Assembly: GCA_032595685.2 (NCBI GenBank)
Contig: CP159373.1
Coordinates: forward strand, 517,001-581,000
Direction of reading: 5' to 3'
DNA: 64,000 bases
Source of the DNA: Candidatus Electrothrix aestuarii
GTDB lineage: Bacteria; Desulfobacterota; Desulfobulbia; Desulfobulbales; Desulfobulbaceae
Shown: positions 6,925 through 48,616 of the stretch, in pieces
How positions within the stretch are numbered: position 1 is the stretch's first letter
Layout: each line of letters begins with the position of its first letter
Notes under the pieces: model-generated
Seen by the model: the letters and a program-made list of their open reading frames with translations, nothing else
What the model was told of the DNA's origin: nothing
Database searches by the model: none
Position numbers and translations under genes: made by a program

Positions 6925-6952
6925 GTCGGGGCACGACGTGCCGTGCCCGTAC
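6925..6952. repeat. 28-bp palindromic element (family A)
   Basis: A near-perfect palindrome with the arms GTCGGGGCACG and CGTGCCCGTAC, lying just upstream of the Roco start. It belongs to the family whose perfect copy is at 41789-41816 inside hypF. Confidence 0.75.
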
Positions 6953-9013: not shown

Positions 9014-9061
9014 GGTCAAAATTCGTTTCCCTATTCTTGCCTTTCACCCATACCCCGCCGG

Positions 9062-9314
9062 GAGTATAACGCTATACTCCGTCCGAGCATAACACTATGC
9101 TCCACACGAGCATAACACTATGCTCCACACGAGTATAACACCATGCTCCACCCGAGTATAACGCTATACTCCATCCGAGTATAATGCTTTACTCCTCATG
9201 AGCAACCCTCGTTCCTCTCCATGAGAAACCTTAGTCCCTCTATCAGAGCAACTAGGGTTCCTCGATAAGAGCCACTACGGTTCCTCCATCGGAGCAACCT
9301 TGGTTGCTCTGCAT
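9062..9314. repeat. Eleven 23-bp tandem hairpin repeats with compensatory arm changes
   Basis: Eleven units begin with GAG at 9062, 9085, 9108, 9131, 9154, 9177, 9200, 9223, 9246, 9269 and 9292, an exact 23-bp period. Each unit has the layout 7-bp arm, 4-base loop, 7-bp arm, 5-base spacer. Arms differ between units but often stay paired: GAGTATA/TATACTC, GAGCATA/TATGCTC and GAGCAAC/GTTGCTC. Several middle units have one to three mismatches. The array fills most of the gap between the RloB-like gene and the convergent glycosyltransferase. 23 is not a multiple of 3, so this is not a coding repeat. Confidence 0.9.
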
Positions 9315-10579: not shown

Positions 10580-10609
10580 GTAGGGGCCACGGCGCGCCGT
10601 GGCCCTAGG
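10580..10609. repeat. Palindromic element overlapping the truA stop codon (family A variant)
   Basis: A palindrome with arms built on GTAGGGGCCACGGCG and CGCCGTGGCCCTA. It fills most of the gap between truA and the glycosyltransferase start, and the truA stop codon (10605-10607) lies within its right end. Any hairpin would sit in the mRNA between the two genes. Confidence 0.75.
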
Positions 10610-25057: not shown

Positions 25058-25085
25058 GCAGGGGCACGGCGTACCGTGCCCGTAC
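25058..25085. repeat. 28-bp palindromic element (family A)
   Basis: The palindrome has GCAGGGGCACGG and CCGTGCCCGTAC as arms around GTA. It lies 43 bases after the family B copy in the 620-bp gap downstream of the adaptor gene. Confidence 0.75.
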
Positions 25086-26093: not shown

Positions 26094-26154
26094 GTAGGGG
26101 CGAATCCCTGTGTTCGCCCTTTTCTATCGGGCAGACACAGGGGTCTGCCCCTAC
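26094..26154. repeat. 61-bp palindromic element (family A, long form)
   Basis: Begins GTAGGGGCGAATCC and ends GTCTGCCCCTAC, with internal TGTGTTCGCCC and GGGCAGACACA. The same design, with a second palindrome nested in its middle, is inserted in hypF at 41387-41486. It separates the 220-residue gene from the TPR gene. Confidence 0.85.
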
Positions 26155-26179: not shown

Positions 26180-27682
26180 ATGACGGATAACACATTCGAG
26201 AGCAAAGGCAGTGACCAGAACGTTGCCCAGGGCGATGGGGCGGTGGGGAAGCAGGAAAATGTCGGGCAGGAGGTGGACGGAGATGGCAGCATCTTCTCCG
26301 GTACCGGTAATGTGACGGTAAACAAACACTACGGCATCTCTGAGGAACGCTTTGAAGAACTGAGGGATCACCTCTCAATTACCGACCTGGCACTGCGCAA
26401 CTTCTTTAAGATCTTAGAGGAGCAGCAGATCCCCCGTGATGACCTGGACGCCAAACTGCGCGAGATTGCCGCAACCCACAAGGACTTACTTACCCGACTG
26501 GCAACCGTGCAGTCGGAAGACCCGGAGGTGCAGCGGCTCAAGCAGGAGGCCAAGCAGGCCATTGAAGCGGGTGAGTACGACAAGGCTGAGGAACTGCTGA
26601 ATCAGGCCGAGGCCCTTGACCTGAAGGCCATTGAGAAGATGGAGAAGACAGCCAAACAACGGCGTATCTCTGCGGCCACAACCAATGCCGAACAAGCTAA
26701 GTTGCAGGAAGTACAGTTGCGCTACGCCAAGGCAGCAGAGTACTGGCAAAAGGCGGCGGCCCTGCTGCCGGAGGGGGAGAACAAGGATCAGGCCTACTAT
26801 TTGGGCGAGGCCGGTTATGACCTGCTCCGCATTTCCCGCTACAGCGAAGCCCTGCGCATGTATGAGCAGGGCCTTGCCATCAGCCAAGAGATCGGTGACA
26901 AGAAGGTGGAAGGTACCACCCTGAGTAGCACGGGTGCAATTCATCAGGCACAGGGCGACTATGACCTAGCCCTCACGTATCTGGAGCAGAGCCTTGCCAT
27001 CCGCCAGGAGATCGGCGACAGGGCCGGGGAAGGCACCACACTGAACAACATCAGCCAGATTTACCGTGCATGGGGCGACTACACCACAGCTCTCAAGTAT
27101 CTGGAGCAGAGCCTTGCCATCCGCCAGGAGATTAGCGACCGGGCTGGGGAAGGCACCACCCTGAGCAACATGGGTGCAATTCATCATGCACAGGGTGGGT
27201 ACGATAAGGCCCTGCATCTGTTTAAGCAGAGCGTAGCTATATTCCGTGAGGCAGGCAGTAAGGCGGAAGAAGGAACTCTTCTGAACAACATCAGCCAGAT
27301 TTACAAGGCACGGGGCGATTACGACACAGCCCTCAAGTATCTGGAACAGAGCCTTGCAATCCGCCAGGAGATCGGTGACCGGGCCGGGGAAGGCACCACC
27401 CTGAATAATATCAGCCAGATTTACCATGACCGGGGCGACTACGACACGGCCCTCAAGTATCTGAAGCAGAGCTTGGAGATAATGGAGGAGATCGGGGCGA
27501 AGATGGAGGAGGCGGTGATCAGCTGGAACATCGGCCACATCTACAAGGATCAGGGCGACCTTACCAGGGCAGAGCAGTACATGGCCCGTACCGTGGAGAT
27601 TGAAGAGGCCATCGGTCTCCCTACACTTGAAGAATCACGCAATGCATTGGCAGAGCTGCGGGCAGCCCTGCCGCAAGAATAA
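26180..27682 (+). CDS. TPR protein with N-terminal Gly/Asn-rich repeat segment
   Basis: A 500-residue soluble protein. Residues about 1-55 are rich in Gly, Asp and Asn with a GNVTVNKHYG end, a pattern seen before helical domains in NLR-like bacterial proteins. Residues about 55-165 are helical (LRNFFKILEEQQIPRDDL, EAGEYDKAEELLNQAEAL). Residues about 190-490 are seven or eight TPR units of 40 residues, with near-identical motifs such as YLEQSLAIRQEIGDRAGEG. The high identity between units at DNA level (120-bp period) suggests recent expansion by recombination. TPR arrays bind proteins; with the uncharacterised gene upstream this could be a signalling or defence scaffold, which is inference. 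Confidence 0.8.
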   Translation: MTDNTFESKGSDQNVAQGDGAVGKQENVGQEVDGDGSIFSGTGNVTVNKHYGISEERFEELRDHLSITDLALRNFFKILEEQQIPRDDLDAKLREIAATHKDLLTRLATVQSEDPEVQRLKQEAKQAIEAGEYDKAEELLNQAEALDLKAIEKMEKTAKQRRISAATTNAEQAKLQEVQLRYAKAAEYWQKAAALLPEGENKDQAYYLGEAGYDLLRISRYSEALRMYEQGLAISQEIGDKKVEGTTLSSTGAIHQAQGDYDLALTYLEQSLAIRQEIGDRAGEGTTLNNISQIYRAWGDYTTALKYLEQSLAIRQEISDRAGEGTTLSNMGAIHHAQGGYDKALHLFKQSVAIFREAGSKAEEGTLLNNISQIYKARGDYDTALKYLEQSLAIRQEIGDRAGEGTTLNNISQIYHDRGDYDTALKYLKQSLEIMEEIGAKMEEAVISWNIGHIYKDQGDLTRAEQYMARTVEIEEAIGLPTLEESRNALAELRAALPQE

Positions 27683-40087: not shown

Positions 40088-40789
40088 ATGTGCGATGGTC
40101 ACAATCACACTCATAGCCATACAACAACACGGGTTCCTGTAGCAGAGCAAATTCTGTCCGCCAATGACAGGATCGCCCAGCGTAACCACAGCCTGTTGCA
40201 TCAAAAAAACGTGTATGGCATTAACATCATGGCCTCTCCCGGCGCAGGCAAGACCAGTATCCTGCTCAAAACCTTGGAGGCTCTGCAAGGACGACTAAAA
40301 ATTGGCGTCATTGAAGGCGATCCGGCAGGCTCCATTGATACGGACCGGGCTCTTGCCGCAGGAATGCCTGCGGTGCAGGTCAATACCGGCGGAGAATGTC
40401 ATATGGATGCGGTAATGATGGAAGATGCCCTGAGCCAGCTGCCCCTGGACGACCTGGATCTGGTAGTGGTGGAAAACGTGGGCAACCTGATCTGCCCAGC
40501 TAATTTCCGGCTCGGCACCCATCTCAATCTGGTGATTGCCTCCATCCCGGAAGGCGATGATAAGCCCTATAAATATCCGGGCATGTACATGGGTATGCAG
40601 GCCCTGATCATTAATAAAATTGACCTCCTGCCTTATGTCCCCTTTGATATGGAGTATTTCCAGCAAGGTGTTGAGGTTCTTAATCCCGGCATTGCCACCT
40701 TCCCGCTTTCCTGCCAAACCGGTGAAGGTCTGGATGCCTGGGCTGATTGGCTGGTTGATAAAGCACGCGCGGAGATTACCCTCAAGTAA
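40088..40789 (+). CDS. hypB: Hydrogenase nickel-incorporation GTPase HypB
   Basis: A 233-residue SIMIBI-class GTPase. A short His-containing N-terminus (CDGHNHTHSHTT) may hold nickel. The P-loop is ASPGAGKTS (about residues 49-57), followed by VIEGDPAGSIDTDRA, the Cys/His metal site in TGGECHMDA, NVGNLICPA and the specificity motif NKIDLL. It hydrolyses GTP to drive nickel transfer from HypA. The stop codon overlaps the start of hypF (TAATG). Confidence 0.96.
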   Translation: MCDGHNHTHSHTTTRVPVAEQILSANDRIAQRNHSLLHQKNVYGINIMASPGAGKTSILLKTLEALQGRLKIGVIEGDPAGSIDTDRALAAGMPAVQVNTGGECHMDAVMMEDALSQLPLDDLDLVVVENVGNLICPANFRLGTHLNLVIASIPEGDDKPYKYPGMYMGMQALIINKIDLLPYVPFDMEYFQQGVEVLNPGIATFPLSCQTGEGLDAWADWLVDKARAEITLK

Positions 40790-43263
40790 TGTTCGTCCGG
40801 GTACAGGGGCTGGTGCAGGGAGTGGGGTTTCGTCCCTTTGTCTACGGCCTGGCAACAAGGCTGGAACTCTGCGGCTGGGTACGCAATACCTCTGCTGAGG
40901 TGGAAATCCTCGTTCAAGGACAAGACGATGATCTTGAAAATTTTCTTGCCTACCTGAAAAATGATGCGCCCTCACTGGCTCGCATTCATTCCATCACCAC
41001 CGAACCGGATTCCTCTACAAAGCAGCAAACAAACAGGTACAGGGATTTTACCATCCTGCCCTCTGCGGAGCAGCCCGGCAAAGGCCAGCCCATCACTCCT
41101 GTTACCCCGGATGCATCTCTCTGCCCGAGCTGCGAAGAGGAACTGCTGAACCCCGCTGACAGGCGCTACCTCTATCCATTTATCAGCTGCACCAACTGCG
41201 GCCCACGCTTTACCATTATCCAGGATCTGCCTGTGGACCGCCAACGCACGGTTATGCAGAACTTTCCTCTGTGCCCGACCTGTCAGGTGGAGTATGATAA
41301 TCCGCTGGATCGTCGTTTTCATGCCCAGGCATCGGCCTGTCCGGTGTGTGGGCCACGCCTCAGCCTACATGAGATAAAAACATCCCGTAGGGGCGAACCT
41401 GTGTGTTCGCCCTCCCCGGATTCTGTAGGAGCACGGCGTGCCGTGCCCCTACACATCATCGGGCAGACACACAGGTCTGCCCCTACAAATCTGGATTCCC
41501 TGCTCACAGCCCGCCGCCTCTTACGCAAAGGAAAAATTCTTGCTATCAAAGGACTAGGGGGTTTTCACCTAGCCTGTGATGCGGAGAATCCTGAAGCGGT
41601 TGCAGAACTCCGTCGCCGTAAGGGCCGCCCGGATAAACCCTTTGCCCTCATGGCAACAGACCTGGAGCAGATTAAAAATATCTGTCAGATTAGTGAGGTT
41701 GAGGCAAAACTTCTTCAGGGGCCGGAGAAACCCATTGTCCTGTTGGAGAAAAAAAACGTAGGGGCAGGCCCCTGTGCCTGCCCGGTACGTAGGGGCACGG
41801 CGCGCCGTGCCCCTACCTCCAATGTTGCCCCCAACCTGGACCGCCTGGGTTGCATGTTGCCCTACACCCCGCTTCATCTGCTTCTGCTCAATCAAACCGA
41901 CCCTCTTCTTGCCCAAGAATCTGCCCCGGCCCTGCTGGTGATGACCAGCGGCAACCGCAGCGGCGAACCCATTATCACGGAGAACGAGAAGGCCCTTGCT
42001 CGACTGGCTCCCTTGGCCGATGCCCTGCTTCTTCACGACCGCCCTATCCACAGTCGCTGCGATGACTCGGTTCTACGGATAGACAGCGGGAAGCGCACAG
42101 CCCTTTTTCTCCGCAGGAGCCGGGGCTATGCCCCCTATCCGATCCAGCTCCCTTTTACCGTCGAGCCGATACTGGCTGTGGGTGGTCAGCTCAAGAATAC
42201 CTTTTGCCTGGCCGAGGGAAGGCAGGCTCTTCTTAGTCAGCATATCGGAGACATGGACGAAGTAGCAACCTGTAATACCTTTGAAGCAAGCGTGCAGCAG
42301 GCTGGCAAGCTCTTCCGCATCCAGCCAAAATACATCGCCCACGACCTCCACCCGCAATACTTCACCAGCCGTTATGCCCAAAGAGAATCTCAACGCAACG
42401 GGCTCCCCTGCCTTGCGGCCCAGCATCACCATGCCCATATCGCGGCCTGCATGGCGGATAATGGTCTGGAGGATCGAAAACTCATCGGCCTTGTCTTTGA
42501 CGGCACCGGCTATGGCCCGGACGGTACCATCTGGGGCGGCGAGGTACTGATTGCCTCCTATGGGGCGTTCGAGCGTTTTGCCCATCTCCAATGCTTCCCC
42601 TTGCCTGGCGGTGAGGCAGCCATCCGGCAACCTTGGCGCATCGCGGTTGGGGCAGCCCACTCCCTTGATATAGCAAGCGCGGAGCTTGACGACCTGCCCT
42701 TTCTCGATCATATTGAACCACAGGCCCTGAGCATTATCCGGCAGCAGGTGAACAAACAGATCAATTGCCCCCAGACCTCTTCGCTGGGGCGGCTCTTTGA
42801 TGCAGCGGCCAGCCTGATTGGCATCCGCAATCAGGTGAATTACGAGGCCCAGGCCGCCATTGAGCTGGAGGTGCTTGCCAAGCCCTACTTAAACTCAACA
42901 ACCTCCTATCCATCTGATCTTTTCTCTACAGATGATTCAGAGAGAGCTGTTCCCTTACAGGGACTGTTCCGGGCCATAATAGAGGATGTCCGCAGACAGA
43001 AGCCAGCAGGCATGATCGGAGCACGACTCCATCATACTCTTGCCCAGCTGGCCATCACGCTCTGCCGCAAGGCACAAGCCGCAACCGGTCTCCAGGAGGT
43101 GGCCCTGTCTGGCGGGGTTTGGCAGAATCAACTCCTGCTGGACTTGGTCCGCCAGGGCCTGGAAGAACAGGGCCTGACCGTGTATTGCCATCAACTGGTT
43201 CCCTGCAATGACGGTGGCCTTGCTTTGGGTCAGCTTGCTGTGGCGAGTCATCAAATAGAATAG
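40789..43263 (+). CDS. hypF: Carbamoyltransferase HypF carrying two in-frame palindromic-repeat insertions
   Basis: An 824-residue HypF, longer than the usual 750-770. It makes the cyanide ligand precursor from carbamoyl phosphate and passes it to HypE. Domains in order: acylphosphatase (VRVQGLVQGVGFRPFVYG), zinc fingers (CPSCEEEL, SCTNCGPRF, CPTCQVEYDNPLDRR, CPVCGPR), YrdC-like (IKGLGGFHLACDA, KGRPDKPFALMA), and Kae1-like (AAQHHHAHIAACMAD, VFDGTGYGPDGTIWGGE, LSGGVWQN). Two stretches at about residues 200-233 and 323-343 are translated copies of genomic palindromes (41387-41486 and 41758-41816). One lies at the zinc-finger/YrdC junction, the other in a YrdC loop. All recognisable catalytic motifs are intact. 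Confidence 0.95.
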   Translation: MFVRVQGLVQGVGFRPFVYGLATRLELCGWVRNTSAEVEILVQGQDDDLENFLAYLKNDAPSLARIHSITTEPDSSTKQQTNRYRDFTILPSAEQPGKGQPITPVTPDASLCPSCEEELLNPADRRYLYPFISCTNCGPRFTIIQDLPVDRQRTVMQNFPLCPTCQVEYDNPLDRRFHAQASACPVCGPRLSLHEIKTSRRGEPVCSPSPDSVGARRAVPLHIIGQTHRSAPTNLDSLLTARRLLRKGKILAIKGLGGFHLACDAENPEAVAELRRRKGRPDKPFALMATDLEQIKNICQISEVEAKLLQGPEKPIVLLEKKNVGAGPCACPVRRGTARRAPTSNVAPNLDRLGCMLPYTPLHLLLLNQTDPLLAQESAPALLVMTSGNRSGEPIITENEKALARLAPLADALLLHDRPIHSRCDDSVLRIDSGKRTALFLRRSRGYAPYPIQLPFTVEPILAVGGQLKNTFCLAEGRQALLSQHIGDMDEVATCNTFEASVQQAGKLFRIQPKYIAHDLHPQYFTSRYAQRESQRNGLPCLAAQHHHAHIAACMADNGLEDRKLIGLVFDGTGYGPDGTIWGGEVLIASYGAFERFAHLQCFPLPGGEAAIRQPWRIAVGAAHSLDIASAELDDLPFLDHIEPQALSIIRQQVNKQINCPQTSSLGRLFDAAASLIGIRNQVNYEAQAAIELEVLAKPYLNSTTSYPSDLFSTDDSERAVPLQGLFRAIIEDVRRQKPAGMIGARLHHTLAQLAITLCRKAQAATGLQEVALSGGVWQNQLLLDLVRQGLEEQGLTVYCHQLVPCNDGGLALGQLAVASHQIE
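41387..41486. repeat. Nested family A palindrome inserted inside hypF (first insertion)
   Basis: The 100-bp element begins GTAGGGGCGAACC and ends GTCTGCCCCTAC, like 26094-26154. A second palindrome (41425-41452, arms GTAGGAGCACGGCG and TGCCGTGCCCCTAC) is nested in its middle. The hypF frame stays open through it. Confidence 0.9.
41758..41816. repeat. Two abutting family A palindromes inside hypF (second insertion)
   Basis: 41758-41788 is an imperfect palindrome. 41789-41816 is a perfect 28-bp palindrome with arm GTAGGGGCACGGCG. Translation gives residues of the type NVGAGPCACPVRRG and TARRAP, foreign to HypF. Confidence 0.92.
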
Positions 43264-43280: not shown

Positions 43281-43354
43281 GCAGGGGCGATCGGCGGTCG
43301 CCCTTGCTTAACCACAACGGAGACATTCCGGGGCACGGCACGCCGTTCCCCTAC
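43281..43354. repeat. Family A palindromic elements between hypF and hypC
   Basis: GCAGGGGCGATCGGCGGTCGCCC is followed by a second palindrome with GGGGCACGGCACGCCG and TCCCCTAC. They are hairpins in the hypF-hypC spacer. Confidence 0.7.
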
Positions 43355-44740: not shown

Positions 44741-44800
44741 ATATCATCGGGAGTTAGAACCTTGGGCGTATCTATGGCTTAGGAGGATGCCAATTTTCTG

Positions 44801-44913
44801 CGCCCGGTGTTAAAACACCGGGCTATTTTCGGCAGTCCCTCCGGGACGCTGTTTCCCGGCTGTCCCCGCCCCGGAGGGGCGATTGATAATAGCCCACCGT
44901 TTTAACGGTGGGC
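44801..44913. repeat. Composite palindromic repeat, family B, copy 3 (most complete)
   Basis: Three palindromes in a row: GCCCGGTGTTAAAACACCGG, then CCCTCCGGGAC with CCCCGGAGGGG, then GCCCACCGTTTTAACGGTGG. The central and right parts repeat copy 1. The shared sequence resumes at CGTAGATACGCCC (44969-44981). It occupies the hypD-hypE gap. Confidence 0.88.
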
Positions 44914-46777: not shown

Positions 46778-48616
46778 ATGACAACTCCGACACGAACCCG
46801 GAAAAAGCCGCCCGAACCCAATCGGCTGGCAGAATTTCTTGCCATGCTTGAGACCCGAACCAAGCTCCTGGCCTTTTTCTTCGGCCTCTGCTTTGTTGCT
46901 GTTCTGCTCATTCTGGCTATCGGTTTTCCACATCCTACGACATTTCAATACACGGTCTTCCGCATCACCCTTGCCTTGGCTGCTGCCGGAGTTGCCGGGG
47001 TCATTCCCGGTATGATCCGCCTGAAGATGCAGCCCAATGCCCGGTTACTGCTACATGCCGGTGGTGCCCTGGCTGTCTTTGTCCTGGTCTATCTCTTCCC
47101 TCCGGCAGATATGCGCAGCCAACCCGCAGAGAACGGGGGCAATCCGACTGCCCCGACCTTCGGCAGCATCCTGACCATTGAACAGTACAAGAACGATCTG
47201 CTTGAGCAGCATGAAAGATACTTTCAGGAAAAGCAGAAGCGGGAAGAGATTGAGGAGAAACTGGCTCGTCTGGAAGAGAGCTATCAGGAAAAACTACAAC
47301 TGTTACAAGACGCTCAGAAGAAATTGCAGCAAATGGCTGGCATCCTGCCCAAGGAGCAGCTGGCTCAGGCCGAAGAACAGCTGGCGCAGGGTAAGACCGA
47401 GTTGGCTGAGCAGCTTTTTGACCGGGCGGCTGAGGAGTCAGGACAGACTGCGGCACAGGCCCTGTTCCAGAGCGGACGTCTGGCCGAGGATCGGTTGGAT
47501 TACGCCAAGGCTATGCGGCAGTACAGAAAGGCGGTGACTCTTGAGGAGGATAACCCGGATTACCTGTTAGCTGCCGGGAATATGGCCCGCACGATTGGTG
47601 ACTATGAACAGGCACAGAAGTGGTTATCAAAGCTGGTGACAATTATCAAGGGCGGGAAGGATGAGGACAGATGTCAATCCTGCGCCTTTAATGACTTGGC
47701 CGTGTTGTATTTATATATGGGTCGTTATGCAGAAGCAGAATCCTTATTAAAAGACGACTTGGTGATCAAGAAGCAGGGACTCGGCAAAGATCATCCAAAA
47801 GTCGCAACTACCCTGAGCAATCTGGCTGCACTGTATCGACTTCAAGGCCGCTACGAGGAAGCCGAGCCGCTCTACAAGCATGCGCTGAAGATCGGGGAGG
47901 ATAAACTCGGTAAAGACCACCCTGACGTGGCAACCGCCCTGAACAATCTGGCCCTGTTGTATGATGCGCAGGGCCGCTACGAGGAAGCAGAGCCGCTCTA
48001 CAAGCGTTCGCTGGAGATTTGGGAAGAGAAACTCGGCAAAGACCATCCTGATGTGGCAACCTCACTCAACAATCTGGCCGGATTATACGAATCACAGGGC
48101 CGCTACGAGGAAGCGGAGCCACTCTACAAGCGTGCGCTGGAGATTGTGGAAAAGTCACTTGGCAAAGACCACCCTGACGTGGCAACCACCCTCAACAATC
48201 TGGCAAACCTGTATCAAGAGCAGGGCCGCTACGAGAAGGCGGAGCCGCTGTATCAACGCTCGCTGGAAATTGTGGAAAAGTCACTTGGCAAGGAGCATCC
48301 GCATGTAGCATCCGCGCTCAACAATCTGGCCTTGCTATATAAAACACAGGGCCGGTACGAGGAAGCAGAGCCGCTCTACAAGCGTTCGCTGGAGATCAGA
48401 GAGAATAAACTCGGAAAAGACCACCCTGACGTGGCAACCACACTCAACAATCTAGCCTTGCTGCATGGGGCACAGGGCCGCTACAAGGAAGCGGAGCCGT
48501 TGTATCAACGCGCCATTGCCATCATGAAGGCCAAATTCCCCGGCGGCCATTCGTATCTTGATATTTTTCAGGCCAACTACGACGCCCTGAAGAAAAAAAT
48601 GGCCGAAAAGCAGTAA
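46778..48616 (+). CDS. Membrane-anchored kinesin-light-chain-type TPR protein
   Basis: The start at 46778 (MTTPTRTRKKP) follows AGGAG at eight bases; ATG 46757 lacks one. The 612-residue product has two transmembrane helices (about residues 30-55 and 60-110, e.g. LLAFFFGLCFVAVLLILAI). A coiled coil comes next (EKQKREEIEEKLARLEESYQ). Then there are single TPRs and at least six 42-residue TPR_10/KLC repeats with the pattern LGKDHPDVATTLNNLA and GRYEEAEPLYKRSLEI. The repeats are nearly identical in DNA, indicating recent duplication. The TPR domain would be cytoplasmic or periplasmic depending on topology. The gene lies between hypE and a decayed hypE end and is probably an insertion. Confidence 0.82.
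   Translation: MTTPTRTRKKPPEPNRLAEFLAMLETRTKLLAFFFGLCFVAVLLILAIGFPHPTTFQYTVFRITLALAAAGVAGVIPGMIRLKMQPNARLLLHAGGALAVFVLVYLFPPADMRSQPAENGGNPTAPTFGSILTIEQYKNDLLEQHERYFQEKQKREEIEEKLARLEESYQEKLQLLQDAQKKLQQMAGILPKEQLAQAEEQLAQGKTELAEQLFDRAAEESGQTAAQALFQSGRLAEDRLDYAKAMRQYRKAVTLEEDNPDYLLAAGNMARTIGDYEQAQKWLSKLVTIIKGGKDEDRCQSCAFNDLAVLYLYMGRYAEAESLLKDDLVIKKQGLGKDHPKVATTLSNLAALYRLQGRYEEAEPLYKHALKIGEDKLGKDHPDVATALNNLALLYDAQGRYEEAEPLYKRSLEIWEEKLGKDHPDVATSLNNLAGLYESQGRYEEAEPLYKRALEIVEKSLGKDHPDVATTLNNLANLYQEQGRYEKAEPLYQRSLEIVEKSLGKEHPHVASALNNLALLYKTQGRYEEAEPLYKRSLEIRENKLGKDHPDVATTLNNLALLHGAQGRYKEAEPLYQRAIAIMKAKFPGGHSYLDIFQANYDALKKKMAEKQ

What the first reader, a model, noticed from the sequence alone, without database searches (positions are those of the whole stretch)
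41387..41816. Genomic palindromes translated as protein inside HypF
Two insertions in hypF are copies of the palindromic elements found between genes elsewhere in the window (6925, 10580, 25058, 26094, 43281). Both keep the frame open and fall at a domain junction and a loop of the YrdC domain. All HypF motifs remain. The first is nested (one palindrome inside another), so there were at least two rounds of insertion. This resembles the protein-coding palindromic elements of Rickettsia but in an unrelated lineage and an essential maturation enzyme.
Basis: partly seen in the sequence, partly recalled or inferred. Interest (0 to 1): 0.78.

Follow-up and report, generated by a model that had tools for sequence, protein, structure and literature searches.

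The report
Mobile palindromes translated inside HypF
Short mobile palindromic DNA repeats have landed in frame in two loops of a bacterial enzyme-maturation protein and are probably read as extra amino acids; the same kind of event is known from other bacteria, but here related species show it at successive stages.

Summary
hypF (window 40789-43263, 824 aa) holds two clusters of GTAG-tagged palindromic repeats (REPs), residues ~200-233 and ~324-343, in an open frame. Of 31 aligned HypF rows, both sites are filled in the 5 close same-genus orthologues and empty in the other 26, including the 61%-identical sister-genus protein. The repeat is abundant (82+80 matches, reversed control 4+6) and often forms a 61-bp head-to-head doublet, REPIN-like. 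The rest of the gene is under purifying selection (dN/dS 0.16 between the two nearest species); the inserts turn over: an element missing by what looks like a 33-nt deletion, a REP lost, and in the nearest sister species an unrelated 107-bp palindromic repeat at site 2, also in frame. HypF is not special: in-frame copies also sit in HrpA (two sites), UvrD, a Mur ligase double ORF and probably DnaX and an aminotransferase-CobB fusion. Intragenic GTAG-REPs, often doublets and in repair genes, were described in 2013 (PMC3733652), so this is a new member of a known kind; its value is the species series. Most likely these are tolerated passengers. Translation, neutrality and the transposase that moves them are inferred.

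The parts
40789..43263 (+). hypF, 824 aa, host gene
   Evidence: TIGR00143 765.5 bits; Pfam Acylphosphatase, zf-HYPF x2, Sua5_yciO_yrdC, HypF_C, HypF_C_2; motifs VQGVGFRPF, two Cx2Cx18Cx2C, SGN, QHHHAH, SGGVWQN present (motif names and patterns recalled)
41387..41412 (+). site 1, REP B (GTAG + hairpin)
   Evidence: read as RRGEPVCSP
41425..41452 (.). site 1, palindrome A lying between B and B'
   Evidence: read as VGARRAVPL
41461..41486 (-). site 1, inverted REP B', partner of the doublet
   Evidence: read as GQTHRSAPT
41758..41783 (+). site 2, REP B
   Evidence: read as VGAGPCACP
41789..41816 (.). site 2, perfect 28-bp palindrome A
   Evidence: read as RRGTARRAPT
43281..43303 (+). REP-like copy downstream of hypF, no ORF of >=150 aa overlapping
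43330..43353 (.). A-type palindrome downstream of hypF, no ORF of >=150 aa overlapping
26094..26154 (.). canonical 61-bp head-to-head REP doublet, no ORF of >=150 aa overlapping
25058..25085 (.). A-type palindrome, no ORF of >=150 aa overlapping
6925..6952 (.). A-type palindrome, overlapping the end of a 734-aa ORF
10580..10607 (.). A-like palindrome, overlapping the ends of two ORFs
44794..44913 (-). copy of the second palindromic family, the one found in HypF site 2 of sister species G007
   Evidence: 78.5% over 121 nt

Best explanation
The inserts are GTAG-tagged REP elements, probably mobile as a 61-bp head-to-head doublet (REPIN-like), that entered hypF before the five sampled species of this genus split. 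Shown: the element family, the filled and empty sites, the open frame in all five species, strong purifying selection on the rest of the protein, and different make-up of the inserts between species (an element missing, one REP lost, replacement by a second palindromic family). Inferred: (1) copies land widely and those that break frame, hit the TAG-containing frame or damage the fold are removed by selection, leaving in-frame copies in length-tolerant linkers and loops; (2) ribosomes read them as ordinary codons, adding roughly 20-34 residues per site; (3) these residues are tolerated passengers rather than new functional parts; (4) movement is by an HUH/Y1 transposase of the TnpA-REP (RAYT) kind acting in trans. 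An established insert is then a permissive place where further elements can land or be lost at little cost.
For: Copy number and control. Doublets: 35 head-to-head against 1 tail-to-tail neighbour pair within 120 nt, spacer peak at 9 nt; in all 21 canonical doublets the two REPs have different stems, as one composite unit would (read). Sites filled in 5 of 5 close same-genus orthologues, empty in 26 of 26 other rows, among them G016 at 61% identity; the empty rows include G013, whose genome has 151 pattern matches. Tree of 11 rows: G006 branches outside (G003, G001, (G000,G007)) at 92/91, the order of G003 and G001 unresolved; so A at site 1 (in G006, G000, G007) and B+A at site 2 (in G006, G001, G000) are most simply ancestral, and the missing pieces and the replacement later. 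All 10 site-by-species insert states keep frame without a stop. Core dN/dS 0.163 (G000-G007, 756 codons); insert regions 0.31 to 1.56 in the finite within-genus comparisons, on 16-42 codons. G007 site 2 holds a repeat with a 91% copy over 107 nt elsewhere in G007. The same happens in HrpA: both sites absent in 11 of 11 other-genus rows aligned, site 2 differing between species. Against 3vth the native zinc-finger/YrdC linker is ~11 residues and ~46 here.
Against: The transposase link is weak: none of the 9 Y1_Tnp loci of this genome, nor of the 25 further genus loci read (of 39 further matches), shows GTAGGGGC-type REPs with a perfect 7-bp stem on both sides within 1.5 kb; L027, with REP doublets on both sides, carries a different GTAG stem, and the palindrome near L020, L182 and L197 lies on one side only, 0.34-0.65 kb off. 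No protein-level evidence. Insert 1 has no difference in 38 codons between G003 and G001 (core 213 of 756 codons differ), and low dS between G000 and G007 (0.16 against 0.39 in the core): this may mean constraint or gene conversion and does not fit plain neutrality. Loop letters of doublet partners do not match more than shuffled ones (91 of 126, p = 0.14). The structure prediction was useless (mean pLDDT 36), so surface exposure rests on sequence alignment alone. HrpA in G002 and G004 shows in-frame stops, so not every decorated gene is certainly intact.
Confidence: 0.85

Rival explanations
1. The inserts have been taken into use: the long linker or loop changes HypF activity, partner binding (HypE) or stability, and is kept by selection.
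For: Both sites are filled in 5 of 5 close orthologues down to 76% identity; no empty site was seen among them; insert 1 is identical in G003 and G001.
Against: In the other homologous comparisons insert regions have a higher dN than the core, and whole elements are missing or replaced; the same peptides occur in unrelated proteins, so no HypF-specific role is indicated.
Confidence: 0.08
2. The inserts are skipped: hairpins in the mRNA are bypassed by the ribosome, so the protein lacks the residues.
For: Very stable RNA folds: site 1 -66.4 kcal/mol (z -9.6), site 2 -44.9 (z -4.4).
Against: All 10 insert states keep frame and are stop-free, and the apparent G003/G001 deletion is 33 nt; bypass would not need this. 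Take-off and landing codons were not sought.
Confidence: 0.03
3. hypF is a decaying gene or the inserts are an assembly artefact.
For: Repeats are a common cause of misassembly; HrpA of G002 and G004 has stops.
Against: Five separate genomes agree on the sites; core dN/dS 0.12-0.16 within the genus; motifs present; the gene sits between ORFs that look like hypB and hypC (named by eye).
Confidence: 0.02
4. Sites 1 and 2 are insertion hot spots hit again and again, rather than old insertions being inherited and edited; resident REPs serve as targets for other elements.
For: Two unrelated families at the same loop in sister species; A inside the B-B' spacer at site 1; an added REP in HrpA of G003. 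REPs as targets of insertion sequences are in print (PMC1525189, title and start of abstract in search listings).
Against: Shared flanks and shared A at site 1 in G000, G007 and G006 favour inheritance plus editing; no insertion intermediates seen.
Confidence: 0.3

Closest known systems
Intragenic GTAG-REPs (Di Nocera, De Gregorio and Rocco 2013, PMC3733652)
   Same: GTAG end, short hairpin, head-to-head doublets, more than half of intragenic cases doublets or groups coding 20-30 aa, two insertions per gene, many in DNA synthesis and repair genes, suggested to be tolerated in linkers or loops; different REPs at about the same site in recB of two Xanthomonas species
   Different: HypF as host and this lineage; here five orthologues suggest the order of events and a different kind of repeat occupies the same loop in a sister species. 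Their family consensus table is a figure and could not be compared
Rickettsia palindromic elements (RPE) and Wolbachia palindromic elements (WPE)
   Same: Mobile palindromes in frame within conserved proteins; orthologues filled at the same sites (PMC3767692, passages); WPE-like in-frame inserts in addA, addB, priA (PMC4224334, passage); [quoted passage not shown]
   Different: RPE-4 and RPE-6 are placed in the CGTC group (PMC3733652); RPEs are given as 100-150 bp (PMC3767692). No RPE sequence was compared here
REPINs (Bertels and Rainey 2011, PMC3116915, passages)
   Same: Inverted REP doublet as the mobile unit
   Different: There studied in extragenic space and linked to RAYTs; no cognate RAYT found here
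IS200/IS605-type miniature elements (name recalled)
   Same: The 107-bp repeat at G007 site 2 resembles repeats around IS200-like Y1 transposase genes (L020, L184, L187)
   Different: Carries no gene and lies in frame in HypF; its transposase is not proven

Membership tests
GTAG-REP | GTAG at one end of a short palindrome | tested here: met
   B = GTAG + GGGCGAAC...GTTCGCCC
GTAG-REP | High copy number, dispersed | tested here: met
   82+80 matches against 4+6 for the control; 97 clusters from the 157 places listed
GTAG-REP | Head-to-head arrangement predominates among doublets | tested here: met
   35 head-to-head, 1 tail-to-tail among neighbours within 120 nt
GTAG-REP | Mostly intergenic, some units inside genes | tested here: inconclusive
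   30 of 97 clusters lie in an open frame of >=120 aa; 4 of 97 have family matches on both sides or across the insert (hypF, HrpA, Mur ligase double ORF, UvrD), 2 more on one side (DnaX, aminotransferase-CobB). The 67 others were not shown to be intergenic by annotation
GTAG-REP | RAYT gene flanked by the same REPs | tested here: inconclusive
   No both-sided match among 9 own and 25 further genus Y1_Tnp loci read; 14 further matches had no locus and were not read; three loci are cut by contig ends; L027 is flanked by another GTAG-REP
Rickettsia palindromic element | In-frame insertion in conserved ORFs | tested here: met
Rickettsia palindromic element | Sequence belongs to an RPE family | not tested
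   No RPE sequence was fetched; the literature places RPE-4 and RPE-6 in the CGTC group and the tag here is GTAG
Rickettsia palindromic element | Insert peptide on the protein surface | tested here: inconclusive
   Gaps fall in a linker and a length-variable loop against 3vth and 4g9i; own model unusable
REPIN | Inverted REP doublet of fixed spacing as the repeated unit | tested here: met
   21 of 35 head-to-head pairs have a spacer of 8-10 nt, 17 of them making 61 bp
REPIN | Mobility dependent on a resident RAYT | not testable with these tools
   needs an experiment

The most novel reading that the evidence does not exclude
An in-frame REP insertion turns a protein loop into a landing pad: once filled, the loop collects, sheds and exchanges further mobile palindromes, even of an unrelated family, so that conserved enzymes across a whole genus (HypF, HrpA, perhaps UvrD and DnaX) carry fast-changing modular segments built from mobile DNA.
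Probability: 0.35. Interest if true: 0.6.

Novelty: new member of a known kind. Interest (0 to 1): 0.42.

Why it matters
How proteins gain segments from mobile DNA is usually inferred from single before/after pairs. Here several species and two genes (four sites) show filled sites of differing make-up: nested elements, missing elements, and replacement by another repeat, with empty-site relatives for comparison. It gives a natural test of how much random peptide an enzyme tolerates and whether such inserts are ever put to use. It also warns annotators that REPs in this group cannot be assumed to be extragenic.

Tried and rejected
Structure prediction from a three-row alignment gave mean pLDDT 36; no fold search was run on it. 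A test for matching loops between doublet partners was negative (p = 0.14). A search for a cognate RAYT flanked by GTAGGGGC REPs found none in the loci read. Assembly error and pseudogene were rejected. A claim of first report was rejected on PMC3733652 (abstract, passages, sections 5 and 15, first of two parts of section 17). Searches on HypF with palindromes and on Electrothrix with REPs listed no paper reporting this case; only listed rows were seen (10 of 54 and 12 of 672). RepRanger (PMC12306157, passages) had no occurrence of 'intragenic'.

Rows dropped or not examined: of 32 genomes with HypF over the cut-off, 31 were aligned and G027 was not (loci limited to 30); fragmentary hits (G010 second copy, G015, G022) were left out; G002 and G005 gave no HypF over the cut-off. 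In the HrpA alignment rows under 900 aa were dropped (L209 of G004, L220, L222 of G005, L223, L224). Pattern places beginning GTAGGGGCC or GTAGGGGCT (5 of 162 matches) were not clustered. The gene list is a lower bound: exact patterns miss decayed copies such as HrpA site 1. The repair/helicase lean (HrpA, UvrD, DnaX of 6) was not tested statistically.

Full report
What is there. The ORF at 40789-43263 is hypF: 765.5 bits to TIGR00143 against a cut-off of 466.1, with acylphosphatase, two zinc-finger, YrdC and two Kae1-like domain matches. Two stretches inside it are built from palindromes. Site 1 is REP B (41387-41412), palindrome A (41425-41452) and inverted REP B' (41461-41486). Site 2 is REP B (41758-41783) and A (41789-41816). 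With up to 3 mismatches the 28-mer has 18 matches on each strand of the 5,110,699-bp single-contig genome (21 distinct places) and none for the reversed control. The looser REP pattern gives 82+80 matches against 4+6; symmetric copies count on both strands.

Nature of the repeat. The 157 places listed fall into 97 clusters. Neighbouring pairs within 120 nt are 35 head-to-head and 1 tail-to-tail; 21 of the 35 have a spacer of 8-10 nt, and 17 of these make 61 bp. In all 21 the two halves have different stems (read), so the doublet looks like one unit. The GTAG end, short stem, copy number and head-to-head doublets fit the GTAG-REP super-family of PMC3733652. Site 1 is such a doublet with A in its spacer (48 nt instead of 9), so the nested reading holds. 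In the doublets one frame on each strand is always closed by the TAG of GTAG, the others are mostly open (of 21: 17, 0, 18 forward; 16, 0, 20 reverse).

Spread. In 37 genomes the pattern is abundant in the genus (39 to 302 matches in 8 genomes, the lowest in a 69%-complete one), in G013 (151) and in G016 (70, as a palindrome of other core sequence in nearly all listed places), weaker in G029 (31) and G032 (27, against 49 for its control), and at most 12 in the rest. G013 and G016 have the element but empty HypF sites (L076, L065).

Who has the inserts. HypF was sought in 37 genomes; 36 had some match, 32 one over the cut-off, and 31 of these 32 were aligned (all but G027): the window, 5 further same-genus rows and 25 rows of other genera. 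Both sites are filled in the window and in G001, G003, G006 and G007 (76-86% identical to it), and empty in all 25 other-genus rows and in G004, whose HypF is only 43% identical and falls outside the group in the tree, on a long branch. The G016 protein, 61% identical, shows both sites empty. The site-2 loop varies by several residues in length in some other genera (L064, L073, L081), so it is naturally tolerant. Against solved HypF 3vth, the linker between zinc fingers and YrdC is about 11 residues, here about 46.

Order of events. The tree puts G006 outside (G003, G001, (G000,G007)) with support 92/91; the order of G003 and G001 is unresolved. At site 1, G000 and G007 carry B-A-B'; G006 carries A-B' with other sequence in place of B; G003 and G001 carry B-B' with a junction that equals the A-containing form minus 33 nt (read by eye). 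At site 2, G000, G001 and G006 carry B-A, G003 only A, and G007 neither: it carries a different repeat in frame. A 110-nt query from it has a 91% match over 107 nt elsewhere in G007, and 31, 40, 35 and 26 matches (E <= 0.001, some partial or on both strands, at most 40 candidates scored per genome) in G007, G000, G003 and G006; it also occurs in the window (44794-44913, 78.5%) and resembles repeats around IS200-like Y1 transposase genes. All ten site-by-species states are in frame and stop-free.

Selection. Between G000 and G007 the core (756 codons) has dN 0.064, dS 0.390, ratio 0.163; the other within-genus pairs give 0.124-0.162. Insert regions, which include a few flanking codons, give ratios from 0.31 to 1.56 on 16-42 codons; the G000-G007 site-2 value compares non-homologous sequence and means nothing; G003-G001 insert 1 has no difference in 38 codons, against 213 of 756 in the core. 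The gene works under constraint; the inserts mostly look less constrained, with that exception.

Not only HypF. ORFs of at least 120 aa, with at least 30 codons before and 15 after, run through 30 of 97 clusters. Of the 17 of at least 200 aa, hypF was scanned and the other 16. Family matches lie on both sides of or across the element in HypF, HrpA, a double Mur ligase ORF (two stretches) and UvrD, and on one side in DnaX and an aminotransferase-CobB fusion. In ALAD, IGPD, SBP_bac_5 and OEP ORFs the element lies near the N-terminus and may precede the true start; in a TPR ORF it lies near the C-terminus; six ORFs had no match. In HrpA two sites are filled in the six genus genomes aligned and absent in 11 of 11 other-genus rows aligned, with site 2 again differing between species; HrpA of G002 and G004 shows in-frame stops. 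Repair and helicase genes among the hosts recall PMC3733652; this was not tested.

Mover. Nine Y1_Tnp genes are in the genome. Neither these nor the 25 further genus loci read (14 further matches were not read) are flanked on both sides by this REP. L027 is a RAYT-like gene with GTAG doublets of another stem on both sides. Mobilisation in trans by a RAYT is thus an inference.

How it most likely works. Doublets jump; most hits in genes are lost; those in frame, in an open reading of the element and in a tolerant loop persist and are translated as passengers; the filled loop is then free to gain, lose or exchange elements. Filled and empty sites and the differing make-up are shown; translation, neutrality, direction of some changes and the mover are inferred.

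Organism. A same-genus contig of the same length (11,289 bases) as G001:C20 is JAABTP010000116.1, 'Desulfobulbaceae bacterium isolate S24.Bin023'. G007 has 5,089,909 bases; the closed genome of Candidatus Electrothrix scaldis is reported as 5.09 Mbp (PMC10926707, passages). So the genus is probably Electrothrix (cable bacteria); this is an inference from size.

Verdict. Its interest lies in the species series and in one palindrome family standing in for another at the same protein loop, for which partial precedents exist (recB of two Xanthomonas species in PMC3733652; biotin ligase of Rickettsia and Wolbachia in PMC3767692).

Noticed in passing
L095 (G000:C1:61972-65883, - strand): HrpA helicase gene with two in-frame REP sites (residues ~520-545, decayed, and 601-638), both absent in the other-genus rows aligned; site 2 make-up differs between species.
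   Followed up: yes
L027 (G000:C1:3438523-3441852): RAYT-like Y1_Tnp gene (172 aa) flanked on both sides by GTAGGTTGGGGTGA...GAACCCCAAC doublets, a second GTAG-REP type in the genome.
   Followed up: partly
L109:748-3861 (-): 1038-aa ORF with two Mur ligases and a REP at residues 613-621: the REP may have joined two formerly separate genes, or merely sit near the start of the second ligase.
   Followed up: no
L137:1-2409 (-): Aminotransferase-CobB fusion ORF with a full REP doublet at residues 117-137, just before the matched part of the aminotransferase domain (146-399).
   Followed up: no
L138:1963-4908 (-): 982-aa ORF without Pfam match, with an in-frame REP doublet (RRGESLCSP...GQTQRPAPT) after a Cys-rich stretch.
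   Followed up: no
G027:C1:257374-259896: HypF of another family of the order has 228 nt between profile positions 362 and 365 in one open frame: possibly another in-frame insertion at a different site.
   Followed up: no
window 47634-48563 and 26849-27612: Tandem repeats with periods of 126 and 120 nt, by period perhaps TPR-type coding repeats.
   Followed up: no
window 9039-9225: Short tandem repeat of 23 nt, GAGTATAACGCTATACTCC type.
   Followed up: no
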